A stretch of 64,000 bases of DNA from Streptantibioticus rubrisoli (GTDB lineage Bacteria; Actinomycetota; Actinomycetes; Streptomycetales; Streptomycetaceae), in NCBI RefSeq assembly GCF_024436055.1, contig NZ_JANFNH010000001.1:186001-250000 (forward strand), in the 5' to 3' direction. The number at the start of each line of letters is the position of its first letter. Position 1 is the stretch's first letter. The notes under the pieces are model-generated. The model saw only the letters and a list, made by a program, of their open reading frames with translations, was not told where the DNA came from and made no database searches. A program made the position numbers and the translations under genes. Below are positions 7,552 through 63,984 of this stretch, piece by piece.

Positions 7552-9588
7552 ATGGACTCAATGGACTCACCAACCACGCACGTACCGACGACACACCGCA
7601 GGCGCGGCCGGGTCCGGCGTGCCGTACCCTTCCTCGCCGCCGCCACCGCACTGGTGGCCGCGGCCACCGCCGTGGTCGCCAACGCCGGTCCCGCCCGGCC
7701 CGCCACCGCGCCCCGGGTCGACGGCAACCGGGTCGACGTTCCCGTCCAGGGCGGCACCGCCAGCATCGACACCGCGGCACTGCGGGTCATCGCGCGCACC
7801 GACGACGGCCGCACGGTGCGGCTGTCCGACGCACCGGCCACCGCGCCCGGCACCCCCGGCCGCGTCACCGTCTCCGACGGCGCCGCACACTGGAGCTACG
7901 CCGGATCCGGGCTGGACTTCACCGCCCGCGCCGACCACGGACGGCTGAGCGTCACCGCCACCGCGCACCGGGACACCACCTTGAACTGGCCGGTCACCGG
8001 CACCGATCCGGCCGCCGACGCCGTCCAGTTCCCGCGCGGTGAGGGGCTGTCCGTCCCCGTGGGCGACCGCTTCTGGAACTCCTCCGCCGCCGGGCTCGCG
8101 GGCAGCGCCGCCGACATGTCCTCCGACCTGAGCATGCCCATGTGGGGCTACACCCTGCGCGACACCCGGCACGGCGTCAGCTATCTGGTGCCCACCGACA
8201 TCGGCAGCACCCTGCGCTTCAGCTCCGACCAGGGCCGACTGCGCACCACGACCAGCCACCGGTTCTCCCGCACCGGCGCCACCGACGACTACACGGTCAC
8301 CTTCGCGCTGACCGACGGCTCCCTGGTCGCCCCGGCGGTCGACTACCGCGGCTGGCTGTCCCAGCACGGCCAACTCGGCAGCCTGCGCGAGAAGATCGCC
8401 GCCAATCCGCAGAACGCCAAGCTCCTCGGCGCGTTCCACGCCTATCTGTGGGGCGACGCCCGTACCCCCCAGGGTGTGGCCGAGCTGAAGAAGCTGGGCG
8501 TGTCCCGGATGTGGCTCGGCTACGACGCCGACGGCTCGCCGATGAGCGCCGCCGCGGTGGCCGCCGCCAAGAAGGCGGGATATCTGGTCGGGCCGTACGA
8601 CTCATGGGCCAACGGGCAGGACCCGAAGACCTCGGACAGCCCGACCTCCAGCTGGCCAGGCACCGTGTACCCCGACTTCTGCGTACAGGGCGCGGACGGC
8701 AAGCCGGTCCCCGGCTTCCACGACCGCGGCTGCTACCTCAGCTCCCAGGCGTTCGAGCAGGCCGAGCCGGGCCACCACTACCTGGCCGACCGCACCCGGC
8801 AGATGACCGCCAACGGCGTCAACAGCTACTTCCTGGACGTGGACGCCGCTGGCGAGCTGTACCAGGACCACAGCGCCGCGCACCCGATGACCCAGGCCCA
8901 GGACCGGGCCAACCGGCTGGCCCGGATGAAGCGGCTGTCCAGCGGTGACAAGCTGGTCCTCGGCTCGGAGGCGGCAGGCTCCTGGGCCAACCAGGTGCTG
9001 GCCTACGACCATGGTTCCGCCACACCCGTCGCGGACGGCCTGTGGCCGCTGGAGAAGGACAAGCAGGCCTGGGGCGGCTATGCCCCGGCGAAGGCGCCCG
9101 GGGCCTTCTTCAAACCGGTTGACCTGCCCGCCGACCTGGCCACCGCGATGTACGACCCGAAGTACCGGGTGCCGCTCTACGAGACCGCGCTGCACGACTC
9201 CGTGGTCAACGTGGAGCGCTGGGAGCTGCCGTTCGACAAGCTGCCGCAGCAGAAGAACACCCGTGCCCTGCTGGCCATGTTGTACAACGTGCCGCTCAAC
9301 TTCGTGCTGGACGGACCCTCGTTGCGGCAGCACGGCGGCGAACTCGCCGCGCTGCAGAAGTACTTCGCGCCGCTGCACGAGGCCGCTGGCACCCAGCCGA
9401 TGACCTCGTTCCGCTACCTCACCGCCGACCACCAGGTGCAGCGCAGCGAGTTCGGCGACGGAGTGCTGACCGTGACCGCCAACTTCGGCACCACCGCGCA
9501 CGACGGGCTGCCCGGCGGATGCGTGGACGCCGCGTTGCGCGGCGGGCAGGGCAGTCAGCGGCTCTGTCCGGCCAAGGTCACGGGCTGA
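7552..9588 (+). CDS. Exported glycoside hydrolase, GH129/GH101-like
   Basis: About 678 residues from ATG 7552 (a second ATG lies three codons on; no strong ribosome binding site). The N-terminus has a Tat-like or Sec-like basic run (THRRRGRVRRA) and a hydrophobic segment, so the protein is exported. An N-terminal beta-rich region of about 270 residues precedes a barrel-like domain with YFLDVDAAGELY and, about 43 residues later, LGSEAAG. This Asp/Glu spacing resembles the nucleophile and acid-base pair of GH129-type alpha-N-acetylgalactosaminidases. Fold and export are fairly sure; the sugar is inferred. Confidence 0.68.
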   Translation: MDSMDSPTTHVPTTHRRRGRVRRAVPFLAAATALVAAATAVVANAGPARPATAPRVDGNRVDVPVQGGTASIDTAALRVIARTDDGRTVRLSDAPATAPGTPGRVTVSDGAAHWSYAGSGLDFTARADHGRLSVTATAHRDTTLNWPVTGTDPAADAVQFPRGEGLSVPVGDRFWNSSAAGLAGSAADMSSDLSMPMWGYTLRDTRHGVSYLVPTDIGSTLRFSSDQGRLRTTTSHRFSRTGATDDYTVTFALTDGSLVAPAVDYRGWLSQHGQLGSLREKIAANPQNAKLLGAFHAYLWGDARTPQGVAELKKLGVSRMWLGYDADGSPMSAAAVAAAKKAGYLVGPYDSWANGQDPKTSDSPTSSWPGTVYPDFCVQGADGKPVPGFHDRGCYLSSQAFEQAEPGHHYLADRTRQMTANGVNSYFLDVDAAGELYQDHSAAHPMTQAQDRANRLARMKRLSSGDKLVLGSEAAGSWANQVLAYDHGSATPVADGLWPLEKDKQAWGGYAPAKAPGAFFKPVDLPADLATAMYDPKYRVPLYETALHDSVVNVERWELPFDKLPQQKNTRALLAMLYNVPLNFVLDGPSLRQHGGELAALQKYFAPLHEAAGTQPMTSFRYLTADHQVQRSEFGDGVLTVTANFGTTAHDGLPGGCVDAALRGGQGSQRLCPAKVTG

Positions 9589-52916: not shown

Positions 52917-54719
52917 TCAACCGCCGTCCGCGGGCCGTGCGTTGACCGGGTCGCGGGGGTCGGCCAGCAGTGGGCCGCCGCCCAGCGGGACGCCCGGGGG
53001 CGCCTTGTGGCGGGCGCTGTCCGCCGCGGTCAGCCGGACCTCGCGGGTCGCCATGCGCAGCAGCGCGGGCCGGTGGGTGGTCATCACCACGGTCCGGTCG
53101 GTGACCAGTCGGCGCAGTGCGGCGACCACCAGCCGCTCGGCCTCCATGTCGAGCCCGGAGGTCGGCTCGTCCAGCAGCACGATCGGCGCGTCGGCGAGCA
53201 GTGCCCGGGCGATGCCCACCCGCTGCCGCTGCCCGCCGGACAGTCCGGTGCCGCCGTCGCCGAGCCGGGTGCGCAGGCCGTCGGGGAGGGCCTGGGCGAA
53301 GTCGGTGACCAGCGCGGCCTCGGCGGCCTCGGCCACCTCGCGGGGTGAGGCGTCGGGCCGGGAGTAGCGGATGTTGTCCGCCAGGGTGCCGGAGAACAGG
53401 AAGGTGTCCTGGAGTACCACGGCCACCTGGCGGTGCAGCCAGTGCTCCGGGAGCTCGGTGGTGGCGTGGCCGTCGATGCGCACCGAGCCCCGGGTCGGCC
53501 GGTACAACCCGGCGACCAGCGCCAGCGCGGTGGACTTGCCGACCCCGTTGGGACCGGTCAGCGCCACCCGTTCGCCGGGTTCCACGGTCAGGTCGAGGCG
53601 GCGCAGGGCGGGCCGCCGTCCGTAGGCCATGGTGACGCCGTGGAACTCGATCCGGCCGCGGGCGCGGGCGGGCAGCCGCTCGGTGGTGCCGCCGGACGGG
53701 CGCGGCTCGTCCAGGATCGCGATGATCCGCTCGGCGGAGGCCTGCCCCTGGCTGAAGGTGATGGACAGCTTCGACAGCGACCGGATGGGGTTGACCATTC
53801 CGGCGAGGTAGCTGAGGGCAACCACCAGATGGCCCACGCTCCACCAGCCGTGCGTCACCCCCGTTCCGCCGACCCACAGCAGCGACGCGGTGCCGACCGC
53901 CGTCGCCACCTCCAGCATCGGCACCCGGCGGGCCTGGATGTCGGTGGCGTCCAGGCCCGCCCGCAGGGTGCCGTCGCTCTCCACCGCGAAATGCTGGTCG
54001 TGCAGGTCCTGTCGGCCGAAGGAGTGCACGGTCCTGATGCCGCGCAGCGACTCGGTGACCAGACCGGCCAGCCGTCCCTCGGCCTCCCGCTGCCGCCGCG
54101 CCGCCCGGTGGCCGAGCCGGCGGATGCGCGCCCCGGTGACCAGCACCAGCGGAATGCAGCCCAGGCCGATCAGGCCGAACCGCCAGTCCAGCAGCAACAG
54201 GGCGAGGGCGAAGCTGGCGATCGACAGCAGCCCCGGGAACAGGGTGGAGAACAGCGCCACCAGAGAGTCCTTGATCCGGCCGCAGTCGGTGATGATCCTG
54301 CTGGTCGACTCGCCCACCGCCTGCCGGTCGTGGTAGCTCATCGGCAGCCGCTGCAGATGGGCGTACGCGTCCGCGCGGATCGCCACGCTGATGCGTTCAC
54401 CGGTGCCGTTCATCACCCGGTCGCCCGCGTAGTCGAACGCCCCCGACACCACGGCCAGCAGCACCACGGCGGCCGCGGCGGTGGTCAGCATCGCGGTCTT
54501 CCCGGTGCCGAACAGATCGAGCAGCGAGCTGAGCGGATTGTGCGAGGAGCTCATTCCCAGCACCCGGTCGATCACCGCGGCGACCGGCCACGGAGTCGCC
54601 AGGTCAGCGGCCATCTCGCAGATGCGCAGACCGAATCCCAGCGAGAGCATCCGCAGATACGGCGTGCCGTAACCGCGGAACCGCCACAGTGCGCGCTCGG
54701 TCTTGCGGGTGCCGCTCAT
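52917..54719 (-). CDS. ABC exporter with fused membrane and ATPase domains
   Basis: A 600-residue type IV (MsbA-like) half-transporter. Six membrane helices fill about residues 25-305. ATPase motifs are GPNGVGKST (Walker A, near 388-396), TGLSGGQRQRVGIARALL, IVLLDEPTSGLD and TTHRP. There is no N-terminal C39 peptidase domain, so any cargo maturation would need a separate protease. It overlaps the metalloprotease gene by 4 bases (ATGA) and is the last gene of that operon. Confidence 0.94.
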   Translation of the reverse strand: MSGTRKTERALWRFRGYGTPYLRMLSLGFGLRICEMAADLATPWPVAAVIDRVLGMSSSHNPLSSLLDLFGTGKTAMLTTAAAAVVLLAVVSGAFDYAGDRVMNGTGERISVAIRADAYAHLQRLPMSYHDRQAVGESTSRIITDCGRIKDSLVALFSTLFPGLLSIASFALALLLLDWRFGLIGLGCIPLVLVTGARIRRLGHRAARRQREAEGRLAGLVTESLRGIRTVHSFGRQDLHDQHFAVESDGTLRAGLDATDIQARRVPMLEVATAVGTASLLWVGGTGVTHGWWSVGHLVVALSYLAGMVNPIRSLSKLSITFSQGQASAERIIAILDEPRPSGGTTERLPARARGRIEFHGVTMAYGRRPALRRLDLTVEPGERVALTGPNGVGKSTALALVAGLYRPTRGSVRIDGHATTELPEHWLHRQVAVVLQDTFLFSGTLADNIRYSRPDASPREVAEAAEAALVTDFAQALPDGLRTRLGDGGTGLSGGQRQRVGIARALLADAPIVLLDEPTSGLDMEAERLVVAALRRLVTDRTVVMTTHRPALLRMATREVRLTAADSARHKAPPGVPLGGGPLLADPRDPVNARPADGG

Positions 54720-55798
54720 GTCGTCACCGCCGGGGTGGACGTGCCTCTCATCCGGGCCCGCAACTGGGCGTTGCTGCCTTCGGTGTGGATGCCGTGGTCG
54801 GCCATGGCGGCGCGGACGACCGGGGCGAGCTCGGCGTCGGCGGCGAGCAGTTCGCCCAGCAACTCGCCGAAGCGGTTGCGCCGGTCCTGCTCCCGCTCCA
54901 CCGGTCCGTCGCAGCTGCCCAGGCCGGACAGCGCGCGCATCAGCATCCGGTCGAAGCGTTCACCGTCGCCGCCGTGCGCCAGCACCCGGCCGCGCGCCGT
55001 CCACAGAGCGGAGGCCCAGATCGTTCCGTTGGCGTGCGCGTGCCCGCCGGACTTGGGCCGCAGGTAGGCCATGGTCCAGCGGGCGTCGAGCTGGCGGCGG
55101 CGCGGATCCCACTGCGGGATGTGCCTGCGGTGCCAGCCGTAGATGTCGGGGGTGCCCAGCAGCAGCGCGGTCAGGAAGTCGGCGGTGCCCTCGTCCAGGG
55201 CGACCTTGCCGCTGTGCTGGTCGTCCGGTGGGCGCAGCCGGTTCGCCCGGAAGTCGGCGGTGTGCCGGCAGATGTGGTGGCCCACCTCGTGGTAGACGAT
55301 CGCCGCGTTGTGCGCCGGGGCGTGGAAGTACGGCGTCCCGGTGCCCGGGACGAAGGCCCGTCCGCCGCCGAGGTGCACCTCGCCGGTCTCCGCCACCGGG
55401 TACGGCTCAGGCGGGTCGGTGTCGCCGGGCAGCCGGTAGTGCCCGCCGCCCCAGCGGCTGGCGGAGGAGTGGGCGCCGACCCGTACCACCAGGTGGGGCA
55501 GCGGTGCGCCCAGCAGGTCGGCGGCGAAGCGCAGTGCGCGGCGCGCATGGTACGCCACGTTGGCGAGACCGAACGCCCGTGCCTGTCGCTCCGCCTCGAC
55601 GCCGGCCAGTGGGCCGCCGCCCGCCGCCGGCTCGTACACCAGGTCGGGGCGGTGCAGCAGCTCACCGCCGCGCTCGTCGCGCACCGTCACCTCGGGCAGT
55701 GCGAGCTCGGCGGGCCCGGCGACCTCGGCCGCCAGTTCCACCTCAGCCAACCGGCCCGGCCCGATGCCGCCGTCCGGCAGGTAAACGGCGGCCCGCAT
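54716..55798 (-). CDS. HExGH zinc metalloprotease-like protein
   Basis: A 360-residue soluble protein without signal peptide. ATG 55798 shares a base with the stop of the DUF1611 gene. The zinc motif is IVYHEVGHHICRH (His170, Glu171, His174), with LDEGTADF 27-33 residues later supplying Glu203 as third ligand, the gluzincin layout. An N-terminal beta-rich region of about 110 residues has no clear relative. Coupling to an ABC exporter on one side and a P-loop protein on the other suggests processing of an exported product; the substrate is unknown. Confidence 0.85.
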   Translation of the reverse strand: MRAAVYLPDGGIGPGRLAEVELAAEVAGPAELALPEVTVRDERGGELLHRPDLVYEPAAGGGPLAGVEAERQARAFGLANVAYHARRALRFAADLLGAPLPHLVVRVGAHSSASRWGGGHYRLPGDTDPPEPYPVAETGEVHLGGGRAFVPGTGTPYFHAPAHNAAIVYHEVGHHICRHTADFRANRLRPPDDQHSGKVALDEGTADFLTALLLGTPDIYGWHRRHIPQWDPRRRQLDARWTMAYLRPKSGGHAHANGTIWASALWTARGRVLAHGGDGERFDRMLMRALSGLGSCDGPVEREQDRRNRFGELLGELLAADAELAPVVRAAMADHGIHTEGSNAQLRARMRGTSTPAVTT

Positions 55799-56826
55799 CA
55801 CTGTGCGAGGGCGTGGTCGGCCAGTAGGTCGAGCGCCGCCCCTTCGGCGAGCTGGGCCGGGGAGAGCACCGGCAGACCGGTGACGGCGGCGGCCTCCCGG
55901 GCGGCCAGCGGGCTGGCCGTCACCAGGCCGCTGACCGCCACCACCGGCACGCCCGTGGACCGGAGCAGTTCCACTCCGGCGTGGGCGGCGAGCGCGTCGC
56001 CCACCGCGAGCACCGTGCCCTGGCACACCTCGGACAGCGAGGCGGTCAGCAACCGGGTCTCGTCCTGCAGCAGCCCGTCCGCGATCTCCAGCACGATCGC
56101 GTTCGCCCCGTCGTGCACCAGGGTGTCCCGCATGGTGATCATCGTGGTGCGGAGCCGGTCGGTGGGGTAGCCGAAGGTGGAGGACATCCCGAAGTCCAGG
56201 AAGTCGACCACATGGGCCGCCCCGGCGTCGAGGTACGTCCACCGGTCCTTGCCGCTGCCGGAGCCGGTCACCTTGGCGGCGCCCGGCACCAGTCCCGCGC
56301 GGGCCCAGCCGCTGATCAGCCCGGCGGCGGTGGTGGTCTTGCCGGAGTTCATCGAGGAGCCCACCACGGCGATGGCGTGCGGCCCGGCCTGCGGCGCGCG
56401 GACCGGCGACGGGGGGCGCGGTCTGGCGAAGTGCTCCAGGGACAACGGCAGGTTGTCCTCGTTGGTGAGCGCGCCCACGATCTCCAGGTCGGTCGGGGCC
56501 TGGCAGCTGGTGTGCCAGGAGACCGCGGTGCCGATCACGCCGCCCGCGGTCAGCAGGTGAGCGCGGGGGCCGGGGCGGTGGTAGCCCTCGTAGAAGTCGG
56601 TCGCGTACCGGTTGCCGCACGCGCCGACCACCAGGTCACCCTTGTGCAGCCGCACACCGCGGCCGTGGGCGTCCTCCAGCCGCTCATGGCCGCCCACCCG
56701 GGTGACCTCCGCCACGACCAGGTCGCCCAGCTGCGGCGGCGAGGACAGGCCGCCCAGCCGACACCGTCTCATGTCGGGGATCCGGCGGGTCACATGACTC
56801 CATTTAGCCGTGGACAAGTCCCTCAT
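55798..56826 (-). CDS. DUF1611-family P-loop protein
   Basis: A 342-residue protein; ATG 56826 follows GGGAG. The N-terminal domain (about 20-130) is beta-rich. A P-loop (VVGSSMNSGKTTTAAGL, 154-170) opens the C-terminal domain, with VLEIADGLLQDET and VLAVGDALAAHAGVE further on. This is the DUF1611/DgcN pattern; some members are reported D-glutamate N-acetyltransferases. Here it is coupled to a metalloprotease and an exporter, a context unlike D-glutamate catabolism, so it may modify an amino-acid or peptide product. Confidence 0.85.
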   Translation of the reverse strand: MRDLSTAKWSHVTRRIPDMRRCRLGGLSSPPQLGDLVVAEVTRVGGHERLEDAHGRGVRLHKGDLVVGACGNRYATDFYEGYHRPGPRAHLLTAGGVIGTAVSWHTSCQAPTDLEIVGALTNEDNLPLSLEHFARPRPPSPVRAPQAGPHAIAVVGSSMNSGKTTTAAGLISGWARAGLVPGAAKVTGSGSGKDRWTYLDAGAAHVVDFLDFGMSSTFGYPTDRLRTTMITMRDTLVHDGANAIVLEIADGLLQDETRLLTASLSEVCQGTVLAVGDALAAHAGVELLRSTGVPVVAVSGLVTASPLAAREAAAVTGLPVLSPAQLAEGAALDLLADHALAQ

Positions 56827-57703: not shown

Positions 57704-59752
57704 ATGACAGACACGAGCCGGCTGCTGCACTCCAAACGGACTGTCAGGATCGGTCGTGCCCCGGACAACGACATCGTCGTCAAGGACCTCATGGCCTCCA
57801 GACACCACGCCGAACTGCGCACCACGGAAACCGGTGAGTTCGAGGTCGTGGACCTGGACAGTTCCAACGGAACATACGTCAACGGCCGTGCGGTCGAACG
57901 ATGCGTGATAGGTCCGACCGATCTGGTGGGCATCGGCCAGACCTCGTTCCAACTCGAGGGCGACCGGTTGGTGGAGCGCGGGGACGCCCAGTCCGGCGCG
58001 TTCACCGCCCACGACCTGACCGTGAGAGAACGGCACCGCGGCGAGTACAAGACCCTGCTGGACTCGGTCAGCATCGACCTGCCGGAGAAGTCACTGGTCG
58101 CGATCGTCGGCCCGTCAGGATCCGGTAAGTCCACGCTGCTGCGCGCGCTCACCGGCTACCGGCCCGCCGACTCCGGTGAGGTGCTGTACGACGGACGCGA
58201 CCTCTACCAGCAGTTCGCCGAGCTGCGGCACCGCATCGGCCTGGTGCCGCAGGACGACATCCTGCACCCGCAGCTCACCGTGATGAAGGCACTGCGCTAC
58301 GCCGCCCGGCTGCGCTTCCCGCAGGACACCGACGCCGCCGAGAGGGACGCCCGAGTCACCGAGGTACTGGCCGAGTTGGGACTGTCCCACCGCGCCGACA
58401 ACCGCATCACCGCGCTCTCCGGCGGGCAGCGAAAACGCGTCTCGGTCGCCCTCGAACTGCTCACCAAACCCGCGCTGCTACTGCTCGACGAGCCGACCTC
58501 CGGGCTCGACCCGGGGCTGGACCGGCAGGTGATGCAGATGCTGCGCGGCCTCGCCGACGGCGGCCGCAGGATCGCGGTGGTCACCCACAGCGTGGCCAAC
58601 CTGCACATGTGCGACCGGTTGCTGGTACTGGCCCCCGGCGGCCGTACCGCCTACTTCGGCCCGCCGCAGTACGCGCTGGAGTTCTTCGGCCACGACGACT
58701 GGGCCGACGTCTTCCGTGACTTCGACCAGTACCCCGACCGCGACTGGGCCGCCATCTACCGCGGGTCGATCCACCACCGCACCTACACCGCGGGCAAGGC
58801 GGAGGAGGCGGCCAGCCCCGCCGCGGACGACGCCGCCGAACGGCAGAGCGCGCCCGCGGTACGGCCGCCCAGGCCGCCGAGCTGGGTCTCCCAACTGGTG
58901 ACCTTGGTGCGCCGCAACTTCTCGGTGATCGTGGCGGACCGGGGGCACGTCGGACTGCTCGCCGCGCTGCCCCTGATCATGGGGGTGCTGAGCGCCGCGG
59001 TACCCGCCGCGTACGGCTTCATGGCGGCCGCCCAGCCCGCCGGACGTCCGCTCGCCTGCGGTCCGATCGCCAACGTCGACGCGCAGTGCGTCCTGCTGGT
59101 GCTGGCCATCGGCGCCTGTCTGACCGGCACCGCCAACTCGGTGCGCGAGCTGGTGCAAGAACGCGTGATCTACCAACGCGACCGTGCCACCGGGCTGTCC
59201 AGATCGGCGTACGTGGTCTCCAAGGTCACCGTCCTCGGCGTGATCACCGCGACCCAGGGCCTGATACTCGCCGTGATAGGTCTGGCGGGGCGCAAGCTGC
59301 CCTCCGCCGGGCTGGTCAGCCAACCCTCCGCGGTGGAGCTGGTGTTGGTGGTGGTGCTGCTCGCCATCACCTCGATGATGCTCGGCCTGATCATCTCCGC
59401 GCTGGTGCGCACCGCAGAGAAGACCATGCCGCTGCTGGTGGTCTCCACCGTGGCGCAGGTGATGTTCACCGGCGCGATCTTCCCGATGTTCAACGACACC
59501 GGGCTCGCCCAGCTCTCCTGGCTCTCCCCGTCCCGCTGGGCGGTCGCCGCGCAGGCCGCGACCATCGACCTGACCCGGATCGGGCCGCCCGCCGACGCCG
59601 CGCGCCCCAAGCTGGCCGACCCGCTGTGGGCGCACACCGCCACCCAGTGGTACCTGGACGTCAGCGTGCTGGTCGGGCTCGCCGTGGTGGGCGTGGCAGT
59701 GGTGACCGTAATGCTGCGGCGGCACGAGCCCCAGGTCATGCGCCGCCGCTGA
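57704..59752 (+). CDS. FHA-domain ABCG-type transporter
   Basis: A 682-residue fusion; ATG 57704 follows GAGGG. An FHA domain (about 10-85: RIGRAPDNDIV, SRHHAEL, DSSNGTYVNG) binds phosphothreonine. The ATPase (about 105-330) has GPSGSGKST at 136-144, LSGGQRKRV and LLLLDEPTSGLDP. A 70-residue linker, then about six membrane helices (about 410-680). The layout matches mycobacterial Rv1747-like exporters, which are controlled by Ser/Thr kinases. Cargo is unknown, probably a lipid or lipid-linked molecule. Confidence 0.93.
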   Translation: MTDTSRLLHSKRTVRIGRAPDNDIVVKDLMASRHHAELRTTETGEFEVVDLDSSNGTYVNGRAVERCVIGPTDLVGIGQTSFQLEGDRLVERGDAQSGAFTAHDLTVRERHRGEYKTLLDSVSIDLPEKSLVAIVGPSGSGKSTLLRALTGYRPADSGEVLYDGRDLYQQFAELRHRIGLVPQDDILHPQLTVMKALRYAARLRFPQDTDAAERDARVTEVLAELGLSHRADNRITALSGGQRKRVSVALELLTKPALLLLDEPTSGLDPGLDRQVMQMLRGLADGGRRIAVVTHSVANLHMCDRLLVLAPGGRTAYFGPPQYALEFFGHDDWADVFRDFDQYPDRDWAAIYRGSIHHRTYTAGKAEEAASPAADDAAERQSAPAVRPPRPPSWVSQLVTLVRRNFSVIVADRGHVGLLAALPLIMGVLSAAVPAAYGFMAAAQPAGRPLACGPIANVDAQCVLLVLAIGACLTGTANSVRELVQERVIYQRDRATGLSRSAYVVSKVTVLGVITATQGLILAVIGLAGRKLPSAGLVSQPSAVELVLVVVLLAITSMMLGLIISALVRTAEKTMPLLVVSTVAQVMFTGAIFPMFNDTGLAQLSWLSPSRWAVAAQAATIDLTRIGPPADAARPKLADPLWAHTATQWYLDVSVLVGLAVVGVAVVTVMLRRHEPQVMRRR

Positions 59753-59893: not shown

Positions 59894-61987
59894 GTGGGGG
59901 AGCGACTCTACGGGCAGGAGGCACTGCTCGACGGCCTGGTACCGCGGCTGGTCGGCCTGGAGCGGACCCGCGAGCGCCTGGTCCGCCTCGAACATCCCAA
60001 GGGTGGCCCTGTCGTGCAGGTCCTCGGCGTCCAGGGCAGCGGCAAGAGCGCCGCCCTGGACGCCCTCTACCACGGGTACAACGGCCGCTTACCGCTGGCC
60101 CGGGTGGACTTGGCGGCGGCGGGGTTCGGCGAGAGGGACCTGGCCGACCTGCCGGACCGGCAGGCACCCAACGCCTCGCCGGTGACGCATCTGCTCTATC
60201 TGCTCTCGTACAAACTGGGGTTGCGCACCCACCGGCTGTTCAACCGGCCGCCGAAGTTCCCCCGGTTGCTCCTCGGCCTGCTGGTGATCACCGCCTCGCA
60301 GCCCGGCGACACCGGCGAGGCCGACCGGCCGGTGGACCCCGCCGAACTGCGCGACGCGGAGAGCCGACTACGTGCCGTCATCGCCGAGGACCGGCCCGAA
60401 ACCAAGCGCCGCAAGGAACTGCTCACGCAGTGGCTCGACGCGCTGATACCGAGTCTGCCCACCGTGTTCGCCGGGCTCCCCGGCTTTGACGCCATGATCC
60501 AGGCGGCACTCACCACCGCACGCGACCAACTGCTCAAGTCCGGCCCGGCCCACCGCACGCTGCGCTGGTGGGGATCGCGGCTCACCCTGTACCAAGGCGA
60601 CGACGTACAGCGGCTGTTCACCTTCGTCCGCGACTTCCGCCAACCCGGCGACGGCCGGGACAGCGCCGAGGCGCTACTGGTGGCCGCGTTCCTCGACGAC
60701 ATCGCCCACCACTACTGCCTGCTGCGCCGGATCAACCGGAAACCGCGCCCGCTGATCCTGCTGGACAACGCCCACACCCCGCTCGGCAGACGAGTGATCG
60801 CGACGCTGTTAAGTGGGTACGACGTGCCGCTCGGCTCGGGCTCACCGCCGACCCGCCCTGTCGTGGTCACCACCGCGCTCGGGGACGGCCGCGAGCACCG
60901 GCCGTTGAGCGACGTGGCGCACTCCTCGCACTGGTCGCCGGAGCCCGACGGTCCACCGGATCGCTGGCTGCTGCGCCTCGGCATCCACCCGGTCACCACA
61001 ACCGATATCCGGGGCATGCTCGGTGGGGCCGTCCAGCCGTCGCAGCTGACGCAGCTGACGCCGCTGGTCAAACGGCTCAGTGGCGGCCGGGCCAGCAGCG
61101 CCAGCACGATGTGCGACGCCGTCGCCCGGCACCTGCGCTCCGGGGCGACGCTGCGCGCGGCGGACGTGCTGGACCTGCGCGAGCCGGACGGCCGGGACGT
61201 CGCCGAGCACATGCTCGAATCACTGGTGCCCGATGAGGAGGTCCGTGATCGGCTGACGTTGATGTCGGCCGCTCTGGACGAGCCCGCGGCGGTTCGGCTG
61301 TGGGCGCTCCTCCGCCCCGATGAGGACGCCCGCGCACGGGTTGCCGAGGCCATCTCGTACGCGGCGCGGGGGCGTTGCTTCCGCGAGCCGTGGCCCGGTG
61401 CGAACGGCTCCCGGCCGCTGATCGCCGACCGTGCGCTGCGCACGCTGCTGCTGCGCCGACTGCGCGGCGGCGACCGCTGGGACCAGACGCACAAGCTGCT
61501 GCGCGCCGGATACGATCCGCCGGGCCTGGACTCCCGGTACCCGGCGTACAGCACGCCCTATCTGCACCACAGCCTGGCGCTCGGCGAAGACCACCTCGTC
61601 GTACGCTGCCTGCACCACCGGTTCGCCCTGGAGCCGCCCGAGGAGTGGCTGGCCACGGTGAACCTGGTGTGTGCCGCGCCGCGGCCGCCCGACGGGTTCC
61701 CCGATCCGGCCACCGCCGGGCTCTGCCGGGCGTGCCAGGACGCCGAAGGCAAAGCCGTGCACCGGGCGATCAACCGGCTGACGCACACGCTGTGGCGGCT
61801 GTCTGATCCGCTGGCCATCGCCCCCGCGGAGGACGACCTCGCCCGGGTCGCCGCGACGCTGAAGACGCTGTACCAGCACAGCGACGACGGCCAGGCGTTC
61901 CTGACGGCCGGCAGTCAGTGGCCGCAGCGGCTGCGTGACCGGACGCAGGCACCTGATCTACCGGTACCGGGAGGGGTCGGCTCGTGA
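59894..61987 (+). CDS. Large STAND-like P-loop NTPase with two TTA codons
   Basis: A 697-residue cytoplasmic protein; GTG 59894 follows GAGGAG. Walker A is GVQGSGKSA (45-53) and Walker B RPLILLDNAH (Asp291), followed by a sensor-like VVVTTALGDG. The C-terminal half (about 430-697) is helical, as in STAND signalling ATPases, but no named domain is recognised. Leu66 and Leu306 are TTA codons (60089, 60809), suggesting bldA control. It overlaps the next gene by 4 bases, so it should work with that extracytoplasmic receptor-like protein. Confidence 0.78.
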   Translation: MGERLYGQEALLDGLVPRLVGLERTRERLVRLEHPKGGPVVQVLGVQGSGKSAALDALYHGYNGRLPLARVDLAAAGFGERDLADLPDRQAPNASPVTHLLYLLSYKLGLRTHRLFNRPPKFPRLLLGLLVITASQPGDTGEADRPVDPAELRDAESRLRAVIAEDRPETKRRKELLTQWLDALIPSLPTVFAGLPGFDAMIQAALTTARDQLLKSGPAHRTLRWWGSRLTLYQGDDVQRLFTFVRDFRQPGDGRDSAEALLVAAFLDDIAHHYCLLRRINRKPRPLILLDNAHTPLGRRVIATLLSGYDVPLGSGSPPTRPVVVTTALGDGREHRPLSDVAHSSHWSPEPDGPPDRWLLRLGIHPVTTTDIRGMLGGAVQPSQLTQLTPLVKRLSGGRASSASTMCDAVARHLRSGATLRAADVLDLREPDGRDVAEHMLESLVPDEEVRDRLTLMSAALDEPAAVRLWALLRPDEDARARVAEAISYAARGRCFREPWPGANGSRPLIADRALRTLLLRRLRGGDRWDQTHKLLRAGYDPPGLDSRYPAYSTPYLHHSLALGEDHLVVRCLHHRFALEPPEEWLATVNLVCAAPRPPDGFPDPATAGLCRACQDAEGKAVHRAINRLTHTLWRLSDPLAIAPAEDDLARVAATLKTLYQHSDDGQAFLTAGSQWPQRLRDRTQAPDLPVPGGVGS

Positions 61988-63504
61988 GGTACGGAAGTTG
62001 GGGCCCGCTGACCAGATGGCTGGCCGCGACCGTGGCACTGGTGGCCCTGCTGGCCGCCGGGTGGGGCGTCTACCTCGTGCTGCGCCCCGACCTGTCCTGC
62101 GGGCCCGGTGTGGTCAAGCGGGGACCGGCCCATGAGTGCACCGGCGTCAGCGACGGCCGGGTCAGCTTCGGGCGCTACCTGGACCAGGTCACCGACCGGA
62201 TCAGGGCGGAGAACGACAGCCCCGCCGTGGCGCGCGGACCGCATGTCACGGTCGCCATGATGGTGCCGATGAGCTCCACCGGCCCGGCCGACCAGCAGCA
62301 GGTGCTGCACGAGGTGCAGGGGGCGTACCTGGCGCAGTACCGGGCCAACCACGACGACAACGGGCGGGCTCCGGCGATCCGGCTGGTCCTGGCCAACCCC
62401 GGGCGCGACAGCGGCAGTTGGCCCCCGGTCGCCGCCGAGCTGGCCCGGATGGCCGCCTCCACCCAGGACAACCTGCGGGCCGTCGTCGGGTTCGACATCA
62501 GTGTGCCCAACACCCAGGCCACCATCGACGAGTTGACGAACACCTATGGCGTTCCGGTGGTGGAGGGCCCGATGACCGCCGACGACATCGCCAACAGCCC
62601 CAGCACGCCCGCCAAGTACAAGGGACTGGCCCGGATCGCGGCCACCAACAGCGACCAGGCCGCGGCGCTCGCCTCGTACGATCGCAGTGTGCGGCCCCAG
62701 CAGACCCTGGTGGTCGAGGACGTGCGCGGTGGCGACAACTACGTCAGGACGCTCAGGCAGGCCTTCGAGTCACGGACGAAGGGCGCACCGCTCGCCCCGG
62801 AGCAGTTCCGCTCCCCGCCGGACACCAACTCCGAGGGCAGCACGGCAAACGACTTCCAGCAGATGGTCTCCACCATCTGCGAATCCCCCGCGAAGGTCAT
62901 CTACTTCGCCGGACGACCGGTCCAACTACGCCAGTTCGTCAACGCGCTTGGCGCCCGCGGCTGCACCGACCACGACTACACCGTGATCAGCGGCTCCGGC
63001 GCCTCCACCATCGCCCTTGACCCGCTGTTCGACTGGGACGCGCTGCGCCGCGGCGTCACCCTGCTGTACGCCTCCGACGGGCACCCGGACGCCTGGACCA
63101 GCGCCGGTGCGCCCGCGACCGGCGGCTCCGCCGACGCGTACCGCACCCTCACCAAGGTGATCGGCGAGGCCGGTGCGGGCGCCGTCGACCTGACCGACTC
63201 CCGGGCGATCAGCGTCTACGACTCGGCCTGGACGGCGATCACCGCGATCCGTGACGCCACGCACGGCGGGAGCGGCCTGCCCACGACCACCGATGTCGCC
63301 GACGAATGGCTGAGACTGCACGGTGCCCAGAAGGTGCTCGGCGTCAGCGGCTGGATCTGCCTGGACAACTACGGCAACCCGTACGACAAGGCGGTCTCCG
63401 TGGTACGGCTCAGCCCCGCCACGGGCCGCGCCGACTTCGCCGGGCTGGCCTGGCCCACCGGCCATCCGCCCACCGCCGACTGCACCGCGCCGAACGGCGG
63501 CTAG
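61984..63504 (+). CDS. Membrane-tethered periplasmic-binding-type protein
   Basis: A 506-residue protein starting with GTG 61984. A short cytoplasmic N-terminus (MRYGSWGPLTRW) and one uncleaved-looking helix (about 13-33) precede an extracytoplasmic region with paired Cys (LSCGPGVVKRGPAHECTGVSDG). Residues 85-490 resemble a type I periplasmic-binding fold (VTVAMMVPMS, AVVGFDISVPNTQATIDELTNTYGVPVVEG in part). There is no lipobox and no ABC permease nearby. With the coupled NTPase it looks like a sensor rather than a transporter. Confidence 0.8.
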   Translation: MRYGSWGPLTRWLAATVALVALLAAGWGVYLVLRPDLSCGPGVVKRGPAHECTGVSDGRVSFGRYLDQVTDRIRAENDSPAVARGPHVTVAMMVPMSSTGPADQQQVLHEVQGAYLAQYRANHDDNGRAPAIRLVLANPGRDSGSWPPVAAELARMAASTQDNLRAVVGFDISVPNTQATIDELTNTYGVPVVEGPMTADDIANSPSTPAKYKGLARIAATNSDQAAALASYDRSVRPQQTLVVEDVRGGDNYVRTLRQAFESRTKGAPLAPEQFRSPPDTNSEGSTANDFQQMVSTICESPAKVIYFAGRPVQLRQFVNALGARGCTDHDYTVISGSGASTIALDPLFDWDALRRGVTLLYASDGHPDAWTSAGAPATGGSADAYRTLTKVIGEAGAGAVDLTDSRAISVYDSAWTAITAIRDATHGGSGLPTTTDVADEWLRLHGAQKVLGVSGWICLDNYGNPYDKAVSVVRLSPATGRADFAGLAWPTGHPPTADCTAPNGG

Positions 63505-63812
63505 CCGACCCTGTTCACCAGCTCCTGGCGCTGCCGGTCGCCCAGGCCACCGGCCCGGCGGTTGTCGTCGATGCCGATCTCCTCCATCAGCGCGGCCACC
63601 TTCGCCGGACCCATGCCGGGAACGGCTCGCAGCAGCTGGGAGACCTTGGTCTTGGCGGCGACCGGGTTGTCCTTGGCTTCCGCCAGCACCTCACTGAGGC
63701 GCTTTCGGCCCGAGCGGACCGCGTCCAGCAGCTGGGTCCTGGCCTTCCTGGCCTCGGCGGCCTTCTGCAGCGCGGCCTTGCGCTGCTCCGGAGTCATCTG
63801 GGGCAGGGGCAT
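63501..63812 (-). CDS. Integration host factor (sIHF)-like nucleoid protein
   Basis: A 103-residue DNA-binding protein; ATG 63812 follows AAGGAG. The pattern MPLPQMTPEQRKAALQKAAEARK, then KVSQLLRAVPGMGPAKVAALMEEIGIDDNRR (key part LLRAVPGMGPAKVAALM) is the actinobacterial IHF: an N-terminal long helix and a helix-two-turn-helix. It is more diverged than the housekeeping copy I know from streptomycetes and may be a paralogue. Its stop overlaps the stop of the convergent binding-protein gene by 4 bases. Confidence 0.87.
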   Translation of the reverse strand: MPLPQMTPEQRKAALQKAAEARKARTQLLDAVRSGRKRLSEVLAEAKDNPVAAKTKVSQLLRAVPGMGPAKVAALMEEIGIDDNRRAGGLGDRQRQELVNRVG

Positions 63813-63984
63813 GCGGGCTCCTTCGCTCGGGGCGGACATCGTCTCGGGGCGGACACCGTGAATACGTGCCCTCTCGCCGGTGCCGGTTTGACCTCGATCA
63901 CCCGAAGGGGTCCCTGGACCGACAGGCGGTCGCGACCGGTCGGAGATACCGTGTGATCACTGGGAGGGAGGAGGTGGAGACACC

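What the first reader, a model, noticed from the sequence alone, without database searches (positions are those of the whole stretch)
59894..63504. Coupled STAND-like NTPase and membrane-tethered binding protein: a candidate sensory module
A 697-residue cytoplasmic NTPase with two TTA codons overlaps by 4 bases a protein with one N-terminal helix and an extracytoplasmic periplasmic-binding-like domain, without any permease. The paired Cys and ECTGVSDG segment next to the membrane look like a conserved joint. A receptor signalling to a STAND ATPase across one helix, limited to development by bldA, would be a distinct signalling type.
Basis: inference. Interest (0 to 1): 0.58.

Follow-up and report, generated by a model that had tools for sequence, protein, structure and literature searches.

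The report
Surface sensor paired with STAND-like NTPase
Many soil actinobacteria carry a two-gene unit in which a surface protein shaped like an amino-acid-binding receptor is tied to an internal ATPase that resembles the switches of immune and cell-death proteins, which points to an unstudied way of passing outside signals into the cell.

Summary
Two genes (59894-61987, 61984-63504; 4-nt overlap) encode a soluble STAND-like NTPase and a protein with one N-terminal helix, a conserved two-Cys juxtamembrane loop and a Leu/Ile/Val-binding-protein fold outside. Pairing is tight: 80 of 80 named loci found with the binding protein alone have the NTPase gene directly upstream, and 28 of 29 full-length NTPase homologues in 394 class genomes have the binding protein directly downstream. 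Liv-type permeases flank only 2 of 145 pair loci, never adjacent, yet sit beside the ordinary relatives. In distant relatives the parts are one chain: degenerate NTPase core, helix, binding domain (hhalign 95-98.6%; controls at most 0.2%). Four relatives carry kinase, TIR or DUF4062 domains instead. A same-genus genome lost the pair, keeping a binding-protein scar. This supports outside-in signalling and argues against transport. The bldA idea is weak: 63/80 NTPase homologues have no TTA codon, although TTA is enriched (17/80 against 14/802 neighbours). Ligand, output, contact and ATPase activity are untested; the STAND assignment is probable, not proven. New variant of a known kind; no paper on it in ten searches.

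The parts
59894..61987 (+). STAND-like NTPase gene, 697 aa, GTG start
   Evidence: AlphaFold2 model pLDDT 88.0, pTM 0.90; VIA-align top rows are plant NLRs, CED-4, Cdc6/ORC and MalT
60026..60049 (+). Walker A motif GVQGSGKS (residues 45-52)
   Evidence: Lys at this position in 104 of 121 homologues, Arg 13, Ala 2, Gly 2
60752..60769 (+). Walker B motif LILLDN (residues 287-292)
   Evidence: D291 in 121/121, N292 in 111/121
60089..60091 (+). TTA codon, residue 66
60809..60811 (+). TTA codon, residue 306
61984..61987 (+). 4-nt overlap of stop and start (GTGA)
   Evidence: same overlap in 14 of 51 and 28 of 80 relatives
61984..63504 (+). membrane-tethered binding-protein gene, 506 aa, GTG start
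   Evidence: AlphaFold2 model pLDDT 92.8, pTM 0.91
62005..62082 (+). single transmembrane helix (residues 8-33)
   Evidence: secondary structure; hydropathy 2.16 at residues 15-33
62098..62157 (+). juxtamembrane two-Cys loop, C39...ECTGVSDG (residues 39-58)
   Evidence: C39 120/121, C52 121/121, G54 121/121; a loose two-Cys pattern also matched in 25 of 32 single-chain relatives
62239..63465 (+). Leu/Ile/Val-binding-protein-like extracytoplasmic domain (residues 86-494)
   Evidence: LivK 3td9 Z 35.3, rmsd 2.9, 345 aligned; profile matches LIVBP and mGluR5

Best explanation
The two genes make one outside-in signalling unit. The second protein is a single-span receptor: short cytoplasmic N-tail, one helix, a loop probably closed by a C39-C52 disulfide, then a LIVBP-type ligand domain outside the membrane. 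The first protein is a soluble STAND-like ATPase switch that docks on the inner end of this receptor. Ligand binding, or a change of dimer arrangement outside, would be passed through the helix to the docked NTPase and change its nucleotide state or assembly; the NTPase then acts on a cytoplasmic target. SHOWN here by computation: pairing, order, predicted folds, conserved joint, absence of an adjacent Liv-type permease, natural single-chain versions, exchange of the cytoplasmic part in a few members, one loss of the pair together. INFERRED: docking, disulfide, direction of signalling, ATP cycling. UNKNOWN: ligand and output. An amino-acid-like or small carboxylate ligand is my guess, because T198 aligns with LIVBP T102 (the role of T102 is recalled).
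For: 80 of 80 named loci found with the binding protein alone have an NTPase-family gene directly upstream on the same strand (in 9 of the 80 the NTPase call is shorter than 600 aa, some at a contig end). Of 20 further loci fetched around a binding-protein match (19 without any NTPase match there, one with a weak one), 20 have it too. 51 of 51 loci with both called have them adjacent. 28 of 29 full-length NTPases in 394 class genomes have the binding protein directly downstream. Permeases: none adjacent in 145 pair loci, two loci with one 4.7-4.8 kb away, while four ordinary relatives lie beside LivH and LivM. Single-chain relatives carry the NTPase core before the helix: HMM hits on L125 and L273, L276, L290; hhalign 98.6, 96.6, 95.0, 95.6% for four sub-groups against 0.2 and 0.1% in two controls. 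Four others have Pkinase (L256), TIR_2 (L286) or DUF4062 (L283, L287). Folds. A same-genus genome lost the NTPase and nearly all of the binding protein. Distances of the two proteins correlate, Spearman 0.81 against at most 0.22 in 200 shuffles over 121 pairs (11 pairs with a short NTPase call were dropped; vertical descent alone would also give this).
Against: No interaction, ligand or ATPase data. The Walker A Lys is replaced in 17 of 121 NTPases and no Walker A was found in the first 150 residues of any of 32 single-chain relatives (a laxer pattern matched one, L282), so nucleotide switching cannot be essential to the whole superfamily. Five binding-protein genes have neither an NTPase neighbour nor a fusion (L259, L260, L261, L263, L288). 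Two intact-looking NTPases lack the binding protein (G039; G245 = L106). The receptor has only 14 residues before its hydrophobic core, so the docking surface is unclear. The STAND fold is not firmly shown: plain Foldseek is weak (best E 9e-4, to HslU), and the VIA-align Z of 10.5 is below what the tool warns mostly helical models can reach by common arrangement (about 13-14). The one documented loss of the pair is a single deletion, so it need not reflect function.
Confidence: 0.68

Rival explanations
1. It is a conflict or cell-suicide system: the STAND-like NTPase is the executioner or its trigger, and the ectodomain senses an invader or rival product outside the cell, as may hold for the caspase-TM-binding-protein variants of the EACC1 systems.
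For: STAND-like fold (with the caution above); TIR, DUF4062 and kinase domains in four relatives; patchy presence (37 of 249 family genomes by the NTPase query); matches only in one class of the sampled phylum; published TM + periplasmic-binding domains in a two-gene conflict system (PMC7159879 section 33, read).
Against: No PADLOC match. No nuclease, protease or pore domain recognised in the NTPase by Pfam. Shared fixed sites (beside a cytochrome c assembly/ResB cluster in 19 of 60 fetched stretches; beside aminotransferase and citrate synthase genes for single-chain forms) look more like a regular sensor than a defence island; defence islands themselves were not tested.
Confidence: 0.2
2. 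The second protein is an ordinary ABC-importer binding protein that has lost its lipobox and uses a permease encoded elsewhere; the NTPase is an unrelated chaperone or ATPase.
For: The closest solved folds are ABC binding proteins. BPD_transp_2 permeases exist elsewhere in 20 of 20 genomes; two pair loci have one 4.7-4.8 kb away.
Against: No adjacent permease in 145 pair loci, in contrast to ordinary relatives beside LivH/LivM (only profiles from 12 BPD_transp_2 seeds were used). Joining to NTPase-like, kinase and TIR domains does not fit transport. The NTPase has no ABC_tran match.
Confidence: 0.04
3. The NTPase serves the membrane protein only, as a folding or insertion factor or an inert scaffold, and no ligand signal passes inward.
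For: Translational overlap and strict order; Walker A decay in some members and its absence in the single-chain forms.
Against: Conserved LIVBP-like architecture and pocket Thr; signalling domains in place of the NTPase part in four relatives.
Confidence: 0.06

Closest known systems
Leu/Ile/Val-binding proteins (type I periplasmic binding proteins; LivK 3td9, LivJ 4gnr)
   Same: Fold of residues 86-494 (3td9 Z 35.3, rmsd 2.9, 345 aligned)
   Different: Tethered by a helix, no lipobox, no adjacent permease, extra Cys loop; the Tyr202 position is Arg (R311, invariant in 36 of 36)
STAND NTPases (NLR resistosomes, CED-4, MalT, STAND-TPR 6mfv)
   Same: Top VIA-align rows Z 10.5-8.6 over the first ~600 residues (not decisive for a helical model); Walker A and B
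   Different: No other domain recognised in the NTPase; partner is a separate surface receptor; the residue after the Walker B Asp is Asn in 111/121; only sub-threshold Pfam matches in the window's own protein
EACC1 'System 4' two-gene conflict system (eLife 2020, PMC7159879; one passage and section 33 read)
   Same: Two genes, prevalent in actinobacteria, single TM helix; some members carry TM + extracellular periplasmic-binding domain; STAND domains among the variable parts
   Different: That system has an EACC1 gene plus a caspase-type protein; no caspase-type match here, and no EACC1 profile was at hand
GlnH-GlnX-PknG of Corynebacterium/Mycobacterium (PMC9769921 abstract and outline; PMC6069109 listing with start of abstract)
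   Same: An extracytoplasmic binding protein controls a cytoplasmic enzyme, not transport
   Different: There the binding protein is a lipoprotein and a separate four-span protein passes the signal to a kinase; here helix and binding domain are one chain and the partner is STAND-like
Atrial natriuretic peptide receptor and other single-span receptors with this ectodomain (1dp4, 1t34)
   Same: Ectodomain fold (Foldseek ranks 5-8); one helix and an inner signalling domain (recalled)
   Different: Animal proteins; cyclase/kinase-like cytoplasmic part (recalled), not STAND
Inactive STAND (iSTAND) modules of bacterial conflict systems (eLife 2021, PMC8195603; 12 passages read)
   Same: Degenerate STAND domains proposed as receptors, compare the single-chain forms
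   Different: Those were proposed to sense nucleic acid; 'periplasmic' and 'PBP' do not occur in that paper's main text

Membership tests
STAND NTPase | Walker A P-loop | tested here: met
   GVQGSGKS in the window protein; Lys in 104 of 121 homologues
STAND NTPase | Walker B hhhhD with a second acidic residue (typical rather than universal; recalled) | tested here: not met
   D291 121/121 but N292 in 111/121, Asp in 5/121. For this reason I call it STAND-like and place it in no named STAND family
STAND NTPase | nucleotide-binding domain followed by helical and winged-helix domains | tested here: inconclusive
   Helical segments follow the core; VIA-align Z 10.5 at rmsd 7.1 over 318 residues to NRC4, Cdc6 close behind at 9.8, and the tool warns that mostly helical models reach such Z without kinship; plain Foldseek weak
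STAND NTPase | nucleotide-controlled oligomerisation | not testable with these tools
   needs biochemistry
Type I periplasmic binding protein (LIVBP/ANF receptor) | two-lobe LIVBP fold | tested here: met
ABC-importer binding protein | encoded beside an ABC permease | tested here: not met
   none adjacent in 145 pair loci; LivH/LivM-like genes do occur 4.7-4.8 kb away in L175 and L177
ABC-importer binding protein | lipobox, as usual in Gram-positive hosts (recalled) | tested here: not met
   no lipobox pattern in the first 60 residues
ABC-importer binding protein | cleavage by signal peptidase I | not tested
   no signal-peptide predictor was used
EACC1 System 4 | EACC1 gene followed by a caspase-type or cyclase-type gene | tested here: not met
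   no caspase or cyclase Pfam match in either protein; an EACC1 profile itself was not available
GlnH-GlnX-PknG type cascade | separate multi-span transducer between binding protein and cytoplasmic enzyme | tested here: inconclusive
   only the two genes are conserved together; a transducer encoded elsewhere is not excluded
Known anti-phage defence system | match to a PADLOC model | tested here: not met
   0 families for both proteins at E up to 1

The most novel reading that the evidence does not exclude
The pair and its single-chain relatives are a large family of surface receptors of Actinomycetes in which an extracellular small molecule, read by a binding-protein ectodomain, directly gates a STAND ATPase through one helix: an outside-in counterpart of the intracellular NLR-type switches. 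In the single-chain branch the STAND core has decayed into a non-catalytic coupling domain, and in a few members it has been exchanged for kinase, TIR or DUF4062 domains.
Probability: 0.4. Interest if true: 0.8.

Novelty: new variant of a known kind. Interest (0 to 1): 0.62.

Why it matters
STAND proteins are best known as switches whose trigger is sensed inside the cell (recalled). A widespread, strictly paired unit with the sensor outside would show how such a switch can be driven by an external metabolite, and it comes with natural fusions and domain exchanges that make the coupling testable by simple chimeras. It would also give a function to binding-protein genes of antibiotic-producing bacteria that have no transporter beside them.

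Tried and rejected
Ordinary ABC importer: rejected (alone was a cut listing). Known defence system: no PADLOC match. bldA restriction as a family trait: rejected (63 of 80 NTPases without TTA), though enrichment over neighbours remains (17/80 against 14/802; Fisher p 3e-11, not corrected for relatedness). CTA is hardly enriched (0.23 against 0.18 per 1000 codons) but TTG and AGA are, so relaxed codon use explains part of it. TTA positions are mostly not shared (two alignment columns shared by three sequences each). Promoter, terminator and Rfam scans gave nothing useful. Plain Foldseek of the NTPase was weak; VIA-align is a second look at Foldseek's own list, so absent families are not excluded, and NTPase residues beyond about 600 are barely tested. 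The named set is biased to close relatives, because the wider alignment could not be used for scanning and only the best 80 of 234 confirmed stretches are kept. Some of the 93 family genomes owe their match to single-chain forms or to ordinary LivJ-like proteins (L128, L129, L133, L134). The gene caller is my own and missed or cut some genes (the binding protein of G100 in L109; that of G363 in L254). Literature: ten searches ran; none of the listed papers was on this pair by title or abstract start, but a listing is not a reading, two of the searches matched hundreds of papers of which 8-10 were shown, and most subscription journals are missing.
Full report
OBSERVATION. My own GC-frame gene caller picks the same two genes, with an FHA-ABC transporter gene upstream (57704-59752, +) and a small H2TH-domain gene downstream on the other strand. 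Each has a single match in this 7.26-Mb genome. Pfam, NCBIfam and PADLOC give the two window proteins only sub-threshold or no matches (AAA_22, nSTAND_NTPase5 and ANF_receptor among the best).

PAIRING. In 249 genomes of the family, the NTPase query found matches in 37 and the binding protein in 93, own genome included. I fetched 60 stretches (two are the window's own genome). Of 20 stretches around a binding-protein match (19 without an NTPase match there, L092 with a weak one), 20 have a member of the NTPase family directly upstream. Where both were called, 51 of 51 loci have them adjacent, same strand, NTPase first; 14 overlap by 4 nt. A scan of named genomes with the binding protein only gave 80 loci (79 Streptomyces, one Kitasatospora); 80 of 80 have an NTPase-family gene directly upstream, though 9 of these NTPase calls are shorter than 600 aa, some at a contig end. 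One search also counted 30 short stretches from the class search: 104 of 110 paired in all. Of the six unpaired, three are true singles (G342, G506, G284), one is the kinase fusion (G500), one is paired when the profile search over the whole genome is used (G100), and in one no gene was called (G363). In reverse, of 29 full-length NTPase matches in 394 class genomes, 28 have a binding-protein match directly downstream; the exception is G039. Of six partial matches four have one. Losses or decay exist: L103 to L106 and L111 have fragments or no called partner. Of the two same-genus genomes shown, neither has an intact pair; in G013 the flanking DNA is 82-93% identical to the window, the NTPase is gone and only an 86-nt piece and the last ~40 nt of the binding-protein gene remain.

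NEIGHBOURHOOD. Nineteen of the 60 stretches share a site beside a cytochrome c assembly cluster (ResB, Cytochrom_C_asm, DsbD_TM); elsewhere neighbours vary and only the pair recurs. BPD_transp_2 permeases exist in 20 of 20 genomes tested, none of the listed matches within 10 kb of a pair (listing cut). A direct test: profiles from 12 permease seeds (12 of 12 recovered) against 2502 called proteins of the loci found no permease adjacent to any of 145 pair loci; L175 and L177 have one 4.7-4.8 kb away. Four ordinary LivJ-like relatives (L128, L129, L133, L134, 370-409 aa) lie beside LivH- and LivM-like genes. So the test can see a transporter where there is one. Flank lengths differ between loci.

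THE BINDING PROTEIN. AlphaFold2 (45 sequences) gives pLDDT 92.8 with a helix at 8-33. Residues 86-494 match LIVBP-type proteins (3td9 Z 35.3, rmsd 2.9, 345 aligned); Foldseek also lists the natriuretic peptide receptor and glutamate receptors. Of 121 aligned homologues 121 keep C52, G54, C299 and C327, and 120 keep C39. C459 never occurs without a C-terminal Cys (98 both, 15 neither, 8 C-terminal only). This suggests three disulfides and fits an extracytoplasmic location. Charges around the helix fit N-in. LIVBP T102 aligns with T198 and Tyr202 with R311, invariant in 36 of 36 (the roles of the LIVBP residues are recalled), so the ligand may be amino-acid-like but probably not a plain branched-chain amino acid (inference).

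THE NTPase. AlphaFold2 (54 sequences) gives pLDDT 88.0. VIA-align puts NLR resistosomes, RPP1, CED-4, Cdc6/ORC and MalT on top (Z 10.5 to 9.4, rmsd 4.2-7.9), but the tool warns that mostly helical models reach such Z by common arrangement, and plain Foldseek is weak. Walker A Lys is present in 104 of 121, Arg in 13, Ala or Gly in 4; Walker B Asp in 121 of 121. Of 54 members scanned, AAA_22 matched 33, AAA_16 23, nSTAND_NTPase5 1 and NACHT 1 at E up to 0.01. I call it STAND-like, not a member of a named STAND family.

SINGLE-CHAIN RELATIVES. More distant binding-protein homologues are long proteins, about 700-1200 aa, with helix and binding domain towards the C-terminal end. Their N-terminal parts match the NTPase profile directly in L125 (8e-18), L273 (3.9e-12), L276 (9.9e-17) and L290 (7.5e-18). 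By profile-profile comparison 18 of 32 N-termini, in four sub-groups, match with 98.6, 96.6, 95.0 and 95.6%; two controls gave 0.2 and 0.1%. The other 14 were not compared; four of them carry other domains: Pkinase with a sub-threshold TIR fragment (L256), TIR_2 (L286), DUF4062 (L283, L287). None of 32 has a Walker A motif in the first 150 residues; a laxer pattern over 300 residues matched one, L282. Eight single-chain genes lie between an aminotransferase-like and a citrate-synthase-like gene by the N-terminal sequences of the neighbours; Pfam was run on these in L271 only. On a binding-domain tree of 84 rows, 31 of 33 fusions lie together, with one single (L288), on one side of a supported branch, and two (L137, L256) lie inside the paired side (midpoint root, quick method). 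Of 185 binding domains of at least 350 residues, 145 were paired, 33 fused and 7 neither; one of the 7 is the window itself cut at a locus edge and one a tandem second copy, leaving five exceptions.

TTA CODONS. Present in the window gene at residues 66 and 306. Of 80 named NTPase homologues 17 have at least one; of their 80 partners 2; of 802 other genes in the same loci 14. Normalised to Leu codons: 2.47 against 0.58 per 1000. Positions are mostly not shared. So bldA control may recur in some members but does not define the module.

RANGE. The binding-protein profile matched 82 of 394 genomes of the class at E up to 1e-6 (this includes single-chain forms and probably some ordinary binding proteins) and 6 of 296 of a phylum sample at E up to 1e-20, all six of the same class. 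The first look scores few candidates per genome, so these are lower bounds.

MECHANISM. The simplest reading of strict pairing, natural fusion with fixed topology, a kinase or TIR domain in place of the inner part in a few relatives, and no adjacent permease is a receptor whose inner partner is the STAND-like NTPase. Loss of Walker A in the single-chain branch says that the core can couple without nucleotide; in the split form, where the NTPase usually keeps its P-loop, a nucleotide switch is likely but not shown. Whether the output is metabolic, developmental or a conflict response cannot be decided from sequence.

LITERATURE. Nearest published idea: EACC1 System 4, where some caspase-type proteins carry TM plus extracellular periplasmic-binding domain (PMC7159879, one passage and section 33 read). 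GlnH-GlnX-PknG shows a binding protein controlling a cytoplasmic kinase (PMC9769921 abstract and outline; PMC6069109 in a listing with the start of its abstract). Ten searches listed no paper on this pair (numbers in Tried and rejected).

CHANGES AFTER CHECKING. The permease test was added; the importer rival went from 0.06 to 0.04 for that reason.

Noticed in passing
57704-59752: FHA domain joined to an ABC ATPase and an ABC-2 membrane domain, directly upstream of the pair; kept in the same-genus genome that lost the pair.
   Followed up: partly
63501-63839 (- strand): Small protein with an S13-like H2TH domain (PF22525, 1.2e-20), convergent with the pair.
   Followed up: no
L108, about 8369-8872: Deletion scar in a same-genus genome: NTPase gone, two small pieces of the binding-protein gene left between the same flanking genes.
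   Followed up: yes
L265-L268, L271, L273-L275: Single-chain NTPase-like/TM/binding-domain gene between an aminotransferase-like and a citrate-synthase-like gene (N-termini; Pfam on L271 only).
   Followed up: partly
L256, L283, L286, L287, L137: The same ectodomain joined to Pkinase plus a sub-threshold TIR fragment, DUF4062, TIR_2, DUF4062, and in L137 to an N-terminal part without Pfam match that looks like a coiled coil by eye.
   Followed up: partly
L259, L260, L261: Stand-alone binding protein beside a gene of peptidase family M3 (Pfam run in L259 only; the others by their N-terminal sequence), without the NTPase.
   Followed up: no
NTPase genes of L141-L220: TTA codons about four times more frequent per Leu codon than in neighbouring genes, at differing positions.
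   Followed up: partly
52917-56793 (- strand): Three co-directed genes: an ABC exporter-like protein, a protein with an HEVGHH motif, and a P-loop protein (read by eye).
   Followed up: no
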